Source of the DNA: Glandiceps talaboti
Lineage: Eukaryota; Hemichordata; Enteropneusta; Spengelidae
Assembly: GCF_964340395.1 (NCBI RefSeq)
Contig: NC_135552.1
Span: forward strand, 20,308,181-20,372,180
DNA length: 64,000 nt
Direction: 5' to 3'
This document shows positions 13,701 through 16,700 of this stretch, piece after piece. The notes beneath the pieces are model-generated. The model was not told the DNA's origin. It made no database searches and saw only the letters and a list, made by a program, of their open reading frames with translations. Within the stretch, counting starts at the first letter, position 1. Every line of letters begins with the position of its first letter. The translations under genes and the position numbers were made by a program.

Positions 13701-16700
13701 TGTGTATTATATAACCTAGTGCACTGTGTCACCGTACAGATGATGTGATTGTTTATTTTCTCCATTGAAATAAGTAAAAGTTTGTCTATTACTACAGTGA
13801 AAAGTTCCAGGTTTACAGGGTAAGAGTTGAGGAGACAACTTTATCATTTATGTATAACTGAAGGAAACAAGGAATACGGTATTGCTCCATGTACAGATAA
13901 AAGGTCTAAAGTCACAAAGCTCAATCTAATTATTAATTAATGCATATTTCATTTTCAGGGCACTAGATGATCTAGAGAGATGTCATTCAAGCCCATCACA
14001 GCATCTAATAGATGTGTTATTTGGAATGACTCCTAGTATCTCTACTCTTCAAAGCCCAACATCAGGTGAGTGAATCGTATACCATTCATACCTGTTTTAT
14101 CAAAGCCCAACACTAGGTGAGTGAATCATATACCTTTCATACCTGTTTACCTGTTACTTTAATAAGATTTTCCATGCAGAAAGAAGCAAAGAATTGTGTT
14201 ACTGAAGCTTTTATTTAAATAAAATATGTTGACAAGCAACATGGAATAAAATACAAATTAGTTAGTATCATGTTGTAAACAAATGGCAACTTTTGCTTTT
14301 TTGTTGACTTGGAGAGGCTGAGTTGAAGTTTTTGAGTGATAATTTTTTATGAAATGTTGATATTTGAATTCTGAGTTACATACTATATGTAGTGGGTATC
14401 ATTATTGAATAAATTATAATTATCATTTTAAGTTTTACATAAGTGTTGTTATTACTATTATTAAATTTATACAGGTCAGACTATTGAGTTGACATATTTC
14501 AACTCCAATCTTGATGATTCCCAGAGGGAGGCGGTGAGTTTTGCTCTCCAGCAAAGAGAAATAGCAGTTATTCATGGTCCACCAGGTACAGGGAAAACAA
14601 CCACTGTTGTAGAAATTATATTACAAGCTGTTAAACAACAAATGAAGGTATGTAGTATGTGTCAACCAGGCACAGGGATATGTAGTATATGTCAACCAGG
14701 CACAGGGATATGTAGTATATGTCAACCAGGCACAGGGATATGTAGTATATGTCAACCAGGCACAGGGATATGTAGTATATGTCAACCAGGCACAGGGATA
14801 TGTAGTATATGTCAACCAGGTACAGGGATATGTAGTATGTGTCAACCAGGTACAGGGATATGTAGTATGTGTCAACCAGGTACAGGGATATGTAGTATGT
14901 GTCAACCAGGCACAGGGATATGTAGTATGTGTCAACCAGGCACAGGGATATGTAGTATGTGTCAACCAGGCACAGGGATATGTAGTATGTGTCAACCAGG
15001 CACAGGGATATGTAGTTTGTGTCAACCAGGTACAGGGATATGTAGTATATGTCAACCAGGTACAGGGATATGTAGTATGTGTCAACCAGGCACAGGGATA
15101 TGTAGTATGTGTCAACCAGGTACAGGGAAATCAACCACTTTTGTAGAAAAAGTACTTGGCCTAAGGAGTATTTTGCATGAATAGTGTATGGCATCTTGAA
15201 GGTTAAAGACCAGTTTCTGAGAAGTCTGACTACCTATTTATCGAAAAGAGAACACACATTTTGTGTACAGGATTTTCTTTCCAAATGAATATAACAACTT
15301 TTTGTTTTCTAGGTGTTGGCATGTGCACCGTCAAACATTGCTGTGGATAATTTGGTAGAGAGATTAGGAGGTCATGTCAAAGTTGTTAGACTGGGTCATC
15401 CTGCTAGAATACTGCCTGGAATCCATCAATATTCACTTGATGCTATCCTATCTAGGAGTGATGCAGCTAGGATTGTGGAAGATGTCAGGAAAGATATTGA
15501 TAAAACTAGGGTAAATATGATTTACAATTTGAAAGCTGCACTAGCTGCAACTTGAATTTTTTTCTTTGAAAATGTTTTTTTTAGGTACAATTATTTGTAA
15601 TATCGTACACTTGAACAGTATTACATCAGCTGTGGGTAAACTTATTTTTTGTAGCTGTACACACGTTAAATCAAATTGATTTTTCGGTCCACACCCAAAA
15701 ATCAGCGCCCTCAACGGTGATTACAATTTCAACCCTGTTTCTGTACTATTTGTGGATAATATCGACCAATGTATAACATGTACAATGTCTAATTACTGGT
15801 ATTTTAACAAATTTTCAGTGAATATATTGTGGTTGTCTGATCTAAAAATCATACTTGTTTGCAAATATATTTCTACAACTACAGGATAAAATGTCTAAAA
15901 TCAAAGACAAATCGGAGAAGTTTAAGCTTAGAGAGGATACCAGACATCTTAGGAAAGAACTGAAACAACGGGAAAGTAAAGCCATAAAAGAAATCTTACA
16001 ATCCGTCGATGTTGTCTTGGCAACAAACATAAGTGCATCAATAAGTGGACCACTACAGCATTTGAAAGAAAATCACTTTAATTTAGTTGTCATAGATGAA
16101 TGTGCTCAGGTAAGTTGTCTTGTCACATATTTCTCTGTTCATTTCTTTTGGATGAGAAATTTTTTTTCACAAAAAATCATAAAGTTGGAAACAATACTGG
16201 TTAAATACAAACTACTGTAAAAAAAAATGAATTGGTTATGACTATTTGCATTTCTGCCCGAGCAACCATTACCATAGTAACTGCAAACAATATCTTTTCA
16301 CACTAACAGCATGTCCCTACTAACAATTGAATTTGTCTTTGATGGTTTTGTTATGAAGCAAGGTTCAGTCCAACTACAAAATGATGATTTGTGTTTTGAG
16401 AAATGTAAATGGGTTTGTTTTATAGTTAGCAAGATATGACTTCTATAGATGCCACTATATCTTTATTTCTATGTTTTTAGCAATGCACAGAAAGCCTTCT
16501 TTAGGATGTTAAAAAGGAACAGATTGTAAGTGACTTGCCAGATAATAATTGTCTTTAATGTCATTGTCACTGTTTTGGGTTGTAGGCATTAGAGGCAAGT
16601 TGTTGGATTCCTTTATTACAGTCACCTAGATGTGTGTTGGCAGGGGATCACCATCAACTTCCACCAACTATCATGTCTAATCAGTAAGTATTAATACTTA

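What the first reader, a model, noticed from the sequence alone, without database searches (positions are those of the whole stretch)
14577..15160. P-loop exon and its donor amplified into a 16-unit in-frame minisatellite
The 30-bp units begin exactly at the exon 5 splice donor and carry codons derived from the Walker A motif (QPGTG in place of PPGTG). The last unit continues into a second P-loop-like GTGKSTTFVEK. The unit is a multiple of three, so retention of this sequence would add about 175 in-frame residues before a stop at 15181, giving a truncated protein that lacks the rest of the helicase. In each repeat the donor GTATGT has become ATATGT, as if extra donors were silenced.
Basis: seen in the sequence. 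Interest (0 to 1): 0.75.

Follow-up and report, generated by a model that had tools for sequence, protein, structure and literature searches.

The report
Repeat array copied across splice donor
In an acorn worm gene for a DNA/RNA helicase, a scrap of the exon and its splice signal was copied into the next intron and then multiplied sixteen times; the copies look like removable clutter, and similar copied exon edges occur in several other genes of the same animal.

Summary
The window is Glandiceps talaboti (acorn worm), gene IGHMBP2/SMUBP2. Exon 5 (14475-14647) ends AAG|GTATGT; sixteen 30-bp units follow (14649-15128). Each unit is 12 nt of intron start plus 18 nt copied from the exon's Walker A codons; the array ends in a 39-nt exon copy, 36/39 identical (15111-15149; chance expectation 0). 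Four of six frames are open through the array, so the open frame means little; the annotated protein omits it, and a search with the retention product found no match. "Silenced donors" is only partly true.

Best explanation: an 84-bp tandem duplication across the exon-intron boundary, then minisatellite expansion: a "mirage", named in amphioxus; boundary minisatellites are also reported in human genes. It is not isolated: 6 of 99 donors checked in this genome show such duplications, against 1 of 68 acceptors and 0 of 43 exon centres (differences not significant). Minisatellites from 20 other loci show no donor-motif excess, so ordinary tandem duplication plus selection suffices. Three of the six copy a P-loop (p=0.009; 0.05 without this case; post hoc). 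I saw no hemichordate report, in capped searches. No RNA data: occasional retention is not excluded.

The parts
14475..14647 (+). IGHMBP2 exon 5 (counting coding exons of P0001), with Walker A GPPGTGKTTT
   Evidence: P0001 mapped with GT/AG junctions; PDB 4b3f E 4.3e-96 for a query holding this exon
14577..14615 (+). exonic source segment (P-loop codons) of the copies
14648..14653 (+). true splice donor GTATGT of intron 5
   Evidence: score 8.8
14649..15128 (+). 16 x 30-bp minisatellite; unit = 12 nt from intron start + 18 nt from exon P-loop
   Evidence: TRF; units; all 16 genome matches within 3 mismatches are these units
15111..15149 (+). terminal copy of exon segment, 36/39 identical; overlaps unit 16
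15182..15184 (+). first stop in the exon frame if intron 5 were retained
15313..15510 (+). IGHMBP2 exon 6; acceptor CTAG|GTG
14049..14148 (+). second case, same gene: 51 bp x 2 straddling the exon 4 donor (CAG|GTGAGT at 14065; copy TAG|GTGAGT at 14116)
12548..12790 (+). 45 bp x 5.2 array starting at base 12 of intron 3 (donor after 12536); donor not included
33476..33746 (-). third case: 40 bp x 6.7 repeating exon end + donor (TTTGCAG|GTAAGT) in a pectinacetylesterase/notum-like gene; 4 further CAG|GTAAGT copies plus one CAC| and one TAG| variant
   Evidence: PF03283 E 8e-45 for the two exons joined

Best explanation
An intronic minisatellite of the kind called 'mirage' in amphioxus. Step 1: an 84-bp tandem duplication (about 14577-14660) joined the first 13 nt of intron 5 to a second copy of the exon's P-loop segment; only the first 39 nt of that copy are still recognisable. 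Step 2: the 30-bp stretch around that joint (12 nt intron start + 18 nt exon copy) expanded to 16 units by slippage or unequal exchange, with local homogenisation. Step 3: it persists because the original exon end and first donor stayed intact, so the array is removed with intron 5. The anatomy is shown; order of events, mutational mechanism and actual splicing are inferred. No function of its own is needed.
For: 36/39 identity to the exon, 0 expected by chance. The copy's offset (14577 to 14661) fits one 84-bp boundary-crossing duplication (coordinates). Five unit types, 3 variable columns; adjacent units identical 7 of 15 times against 3.1 when shuffled, p 0.015. All 16 matches to the unit within 3 mismatches in the genome lie in this array. 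The annotated protein excludes the array. Same pattern elsewhere: the exon 4 donor, a PAE-like gene, dynein genes L033, L036, L040 and a carnitine-acyltransferase gene L042. Precedents: amphioxus Adh3, globins and PGBD5 (passages of PMC3087553 and PMC3902484); human boundary minisatellites averaging 30-bp units (passages of PMC2812944).
Against: The unit lacks the exact exon|intron junction (GGGA|TATGT, not AAG|GTATGT), so this array, unlike the other cases, is a composite rather than a plain boundary repeat. The second half of the supposed 84-bp copy has no detectable trace (score 11.5; 95th percentile of shuffles 16.0). No RNA, population or sister-species DNA was available. In human genes 66% of boundary-repeat cases show transcripts retaining the repeat.
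Confidence: 0.82

Rival explanations
1. One reading: intron 5 or part of the array is sometimes kept, giving a truncated helicase with a role; extra donors were silenced by selection.
For: Exon frame is open for 178 codons; the GTATGT at the unit start became ATATGT in units 2-16; human boundary minisatellites often have retained alternative transcripts (66%, passage of PMC2812944).
Against: 4 of 6 frames are open; the annotated protein skips it; no protein with the array found; 9 units contain GTA|GTATGT and 6 contain CAG|GTACAG; in the PAE-like gene, L033 and L036 duplicated donors are as strong as the original, so duplicates seem tolerated unsilenced.
Confidence: 0.09
2. A mechanism targets splice donors (for example U1-bound or R-loop DNA, or donor-like P-loop codons pairing with donors) and drives tandem duplication there.
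For: 4 of 11 fully intronic arrays start within 30 bp of a donor (expected 1.15, p 0.016), 0 of 11 end within 30 bp of an acceptor. P-loop-ending exons: 3 of 9 straddled against 3 of 90 others, p 0.009.
Against: 2 of those 4 arrays are in the index gene. The P-loop test is post hoc; p is 0.05 without the index case, or 0.04 if the wrong-frame row 11805 is dropped as well. 57 minisatellites from 20 evenly spaced 10-kb loci on contigs C1 and C2 show no donor-motif excess (3 against 2.4 expected at score 9). Interior intron points are as often inside such repeats (6 of 67 at two positions, 1 of 67 at a third; partly the same arrays). Donors vs acceptors p 0.24, 0.40 if the index case is left out.
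Confidence: 0.06
3. Assembly artefact or copy-number error at a repeat.
For: Short tandem arrays are prone to length errors; reads were not available.
Against: Units differ at 3 columns in a patterned way; the array lies within a 29-Mb contig; the same kind of structure is seen on contigs C1, C8, C17 and C26.
Confidence: 0.03

Closest known systems
Amphioxus 'mirage' minisatellites (Adh3, globins BflGb6/BflGb9, PGBD5; troponin C mentioned)
   Same: Tandem repeats made of exon-edge plus intron-edge sequence, in several genes, 10-160 bp units, extra AG/GT signals, reported not to interfere with splicing (passages of PMC3087553 and PMC3902484).
   Different: Hemichordate, not cephalochordate; this unit is a composite lacking the exact junction, its exon part coming from positions -71 to -54 before the donor; splicing not tested by RNA.
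Human internal tandem repeats at exon-intron boundaries of duplicated genes (passages of PMC2812944)
   Same: Minisatellite expansion at exon-intron boundaries, units averaging 30 bp; 27 intron modifications reported.
   Different: Recent primate paralogs, many with transcripts that keep the repeat; here a single-copy-annotated gene with no RNA evidence, and the repeat lies in a pre-existing intron.
Tandem duplication or repeat expansion as a route to new introns (passages of PMC3443670 and PMC2395259)
   Same: Duplicated segments carry AG|GT sites and enlarge or could create introns.
   Different: No new intron is shown here; age of intron 5 unknown.
Dual-specific AG|GT splice sites in tandem repeats such as polyubiquitin UBC (abstract of PMC10809524)
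   Same: Arrays of AG|GT in tandem repeats, most clearly the PAE-like gene at 33476-33746.
   Different: Not coding repeats; use of the sites is unknown.

Membership tests
Mirage minisatellite | tandem repeats derived from an exon-intron boundary region | tested here: met
   Exon P-loop copy joined to intron start; plain boundary repeats at 14049-14148 and 33476-33746
Mirage minisatellite | repeat unit contains the exon|intron junction itself | tested here: inconclusive
   Index unit holds GA|TATGT, not AG|GTATGT; met at 14065, 33725, L033, L036, L040
Mirage minisatellite | recurs in several genes of the genome | tested here: met
   5 of 99 donors straddled by script plus the index composite: IGHMBP2, three dynein genes, one carnitine acyltransferase; also the PAE-like gene, outside that count
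Mirage minisatellite | regular splicing is undisturbed | tested here: inconclusive
   Annotated protein skips the array; no RNA data
Mirage minisatellite | length polymorphism / somatic instability | not testable with these tools
   one assembly only
IGHMBP2/SMUBP2 helicase (host gene) | SF1 helicase core plus SMUBP-2 1B, R3H and AN1 domains | tested here: met
   PF13086, PF13087, PF21138, PF01424 over cut-off; PF01428 (AN1) found but below its cut-off, 20.9 vs 27.9; PDB 4b3f
Intron gain by tandem duplication | a new intron absent from relatives | not testable with these tools
   no related eukaryotic genome DNA was available; only proteins

The most novel reading that the evidence does not exclude
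Exon ends that encode P-loops are hotspots for donor-straddling duplication, because P-loop codons such as GGT-ACA and GGT-AAA-AC resemble a splice donor (CAG|GTACAG, G|GTAAAA) and provide short homology to the real donor a few dozen bases downstream. In an acorn worm rich in minisatellites this repeatedly seeds arrays of donors that lengthen introns and may be spliced stepwise through AG|GT sites.
Probability: 0.08. Interest if true: 0.55.

Novelty: new member of a known kind. Interest (0 to 1): 0.32.

Why it matters
Exon-edge tandem repeats are on record for amphioxus and, under another name, for human duplicated genes (passages seen). Finding them at 6 of 99 donors sampled in a hemichordate suggests they are a general by-product of minisatellite-rich genomes, and gives another genome in which to ask how splicing copes with strings of equally strong donors and whether such duplications enlarge or create introns.

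Tried and rejected
Chance similarity to the P-loop: rejected. A dispersed satellite inserted at the donor: rejected, all 16 genome matches within 3 mismatches are this array. Coding selection on the open frame: uninformative (4 of 6 frames open). Retained-protein isoform in databases: none found. Donor-motif enrichment in minisatellites generally: not found. A first shuffle test of the exon copy used only its last 25 nt and was weak (score 21; shuffle maximum 22.5; 3 of 1000 reached it); replaced. A tblastn of the exon against phage records was pointless for this question and empty. Long open frames printed for carnitine-acyltransferase exons were not reproduced in L042 (longest forward frame 104 codons); not pursued. 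My earlier thought that boundary repeats are known only from amphioxus was wrong; on re-checking I lowered the best explanation from 0.85 to 0.82, raised the retention rival from 0.06 to 0.09, and lowered interest from 0.36 to 0.32.

Limits of the junction count: the 13 dynein regions hold 72 of 89 hits and were chosen for compact hits before looking at repeats; the 3 carnitine-acyltransferase regions hold 22 of 68 hits and were chosen after I had noticed the long open-frame values, so not blind. Splice sites there were inferred from profile positions plus a recalled donor matrix and an ad hoc acceptor score; 54 of 78 exon pairs resolved, 4 of them with a length mismatch of 3 or more codons; I dropped one more (L038 2835), leaving 53 plus 15 from IGHMBP2 = 68 introns. 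Of 40 exon hits without a resolved donor, 31 gave a donor as the best site near their end. The index donor 14647 was scored 'near', not 'straddle', by the script; I count it because of the 39-nt exon copy. Without it the count is 5 of 99.

Full report
What is there. The best protein match to the gene around the finding is the Glandiceps talaboti SMUBP-2-like protein P0001, 997 residues, 100% identical over the query; the window is bases 20308181-20372180 of contig C5 in a 590-Mb assembly of 47 contigs. Mapping P0001 back with GT/AG junctions gives 15 introns. The exon in question is 14475-14647, the fifth coding exon, encoding GPPGTGKTTTVVEIILQAVKQQMK, and it splices in phase 0 to 15313 (VLACAPSN); human SMUBP-2 aligns without a gap across that junction.

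The array. Tandem Repeats Finder reports 14649-15128, 30 bp x 16.0. Reading the units, bases 1-12 are the start of the intron (TATGTAGTATGT) and bases 13-30 repeat the exon's Walker A codons (GTCAACCAGGYACAGGGA). The last unit runs on into a 39-nt copy of exon bases 14577-14615 with three changes; none is expected by chance in 100 shuffles and the next best place in the window has 16 mismatches. The offset from source to first copy is 84 bp (14577 to 14661), so a single tandem duplication of about 14577-14660, spanning exon end and donor, explains the joint between intron start and exon copy. That the rest of the 84-bp copy was lost is inference; no similarity remains after the copy by the test (score 11.5; 95th percentile of shuffles 16.0). 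There are 5 unit types and 3 variable columns, and neighbours are identical 7 of 15 times against 3.1 in shuffles (p 0.015), as expected from local slippage or exchange. Within 3 mismatches the unit occurs 16 times in the genome, all here.

Is it coding? In the exon's frame the array is open and the first stop is 15182-15184, 178 codons in. But the unit length is a multiple of three and four of the six frames are open all the way, and the 84-bp offset is in frame with one chance in three. The annotated protein omits it, and a search of the retention product found nothing at E<=1e-5 among 4362 candidates. With a generic donor matrix (recalled, not from a call) the true donor scores 8.8; the array contains GTA|GTATGT in 9 units (2.3) and CAG|GTACAG in 6 units (5.3); an exonic site upstream, GCG|GTGAGT at 14533, scores 11.2. 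So the extra donors are weaker but not systematically silenced. RNA evidence is missing. In human genes, 66% of the boundary-repeat cases have support for transcripts that keep the repeat (passage of PMC2812944), so occasional retention cannot be excluded.

It is one of several. In the same gene the exon 4 donor lies in a 51-bp x 2 duplication with both donors strong (13.6 and 11.0), and a 45-bp array starts at base 12 of intron 3. On the other strand a pectinacetylesterase/notum-like exon ends TTTGCAG|GTAAGT at 33725 and is followed by a 40-bp x 6.7 array repeating that exon end and donor; the two exons joined match PF03283 at E 8e-45 (its last three residues I added as expected continuation). 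To look beyond the window I located exons of the dynein AAA_6 family (89 hits) and of carnitine acyltransferases (68 hits) and fetched 13 dynein regions (72 of the 89 hits, chosen before looking at repeats) and 3 acyltransferase regions (22 of 68 hits, chosen after long open-frame values had caught my eye). A G-alpha search (48 hits) was not followed up. Donor-straddling duplications turned up in L033 (56 bp x 2, P-loop exon end, donors equal at 12.5), L036 (31 bp x 14.6, fifteen CTG|GTAAGT), L040 (64 bp x 2.5, P-loop exon end) and L042 (20-bp pair at 6437). An acceptor-straddling 192-bp x 3 repeat is in L035. A further 32-bp x 5 donor array at L042 1342-1500 was recognised only because of the repeat and is not counted.

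Counts. Donors 6 of 99 (5 straddling by script plus the index composite, which the script called 'near'), acceptors 1 of 68, exon middles 0 of 43, intron points 60 nt after donors 6 of 67, 60 nt before acceptors 1 of 67, intron middles 6 of 67. Outside the index gene donors are 4 of 84 and acceptors 1 of 53. None of the tested contrasts is significant (donor vs exon p 0.18; donor vs acceptor p 0.24; outside the gene p 0.65; without the index case 5 of 99 vs 1 of 68, p 0.40). Thirteen arrays overlap the 68 introns; of the 11 fully intronic ones 4 begin within 30 bp of the donor (expected 1.15, p 0.016) and none ends within 30 bp of the acceptor, but two of the four are in the index gene. In 20 evenly spaced 10-kb stretches of contigs C1 and C2 minisatellites cover 27,060 of 200,000 bp, 9,995 of them one satellite stretch, and the 57 units hold no excess of donor motifs at any of four thresholds. 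The plain reading is that this genome makes many minisatellites anywhere, selection removes those that damage exons, and duplications across a donor survive because the first donor still works.

P-loops. Three of the six straddled donors end P-loop exons. P-loop within 90 nt of the donor: 3 of 9 straddled; otherwise 3 of 90 (p 0.009; 0.05 without the index case). One of the nine (11805) is a motif in a frame that P0001 does not use; without it p is 0.006, and 0.04 without the index case too. The test was made after seeing the cases and the dynein domain was one with ATP-binding sites, so this is a lead only.

What is known. Tandem repeats spanning exon-intron boundaries are called mirages in amphioxus; PMC3087553 (passages) describes them in globin genes and cites Adh3, with length instability and no interference with splicing, and PMC3902484 (passage) adds PGBD5 and mentions troponin C. 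The original Adh3 paper I know only through these. PMC2812944 (passages) reports minisatellites of about 30-bp units at exon-intron boundaries of human duplicated genes, 27 intron modifications. Related ideas are intron gain by tandem duplication of AGGT (PMC3443670, passages), by repeat expansion in Cryptococcus (PMC2395259, passages), and dual-specific AG|GT sites in tandem repeats (PMC10809524, abstract). For hemichordates, and the wider searches listed no paper that I recognised as describing boundary repeats; most of these lists were capped (for example 10 of 953), I opened only the papers named here, and the library omits most subscription journals.

Verdict. Observation confirmed, interpretation partly supported. 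The array is most likely a neutral mirage-type minisatellite removed with intron 5, a new member of a known kind, in a phylum for which I saw no earlier report.

Noticed in passing
33476-33746 (-): PAE/notum-like gene: exon end plus donor repeated 6.7 times, with 5 identical CAG|GTAAGT sites and pyrimidine-rich stretches before most of them, so copies could act as acceptor and donor.
   Followed up: partly
32643-33104: Perfect 230-bp x 2 tandem duplication (100% matches) just after an exon end of the same PAE-like gene; very recent or an assembly duplicate.
   Followed up: no
59549-59680: 32 bp x 4.1 array whose unit carries CTG|GTAAGT; no exon looked for beside it.
   Followed up: no
26129-26941 (-): Exon fragments look like U1 snRNP protein C (label from memory of its sequence, not from a search).
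   Followed up: no
L020:1-9995: A sampled 10-kb stretch (C2:2874001-2884000) that is almost wholly a 44-bp satellite, 229 copies.
   Followed up: no
L042:1342-1500: 32 bp x 5 array repeating an apparent exon end HTSYITG|GTAAAG in a carnitine-acyltransferase gene; a further donor-straddling case recognised post hoc, exon identity from memory.
   Followed up: partly
14533: Exonic GCG|GTGAGT inside IGHMBP2 exon 5 scores higher (11.2) than the real donor (8.8).
   Followed up: no
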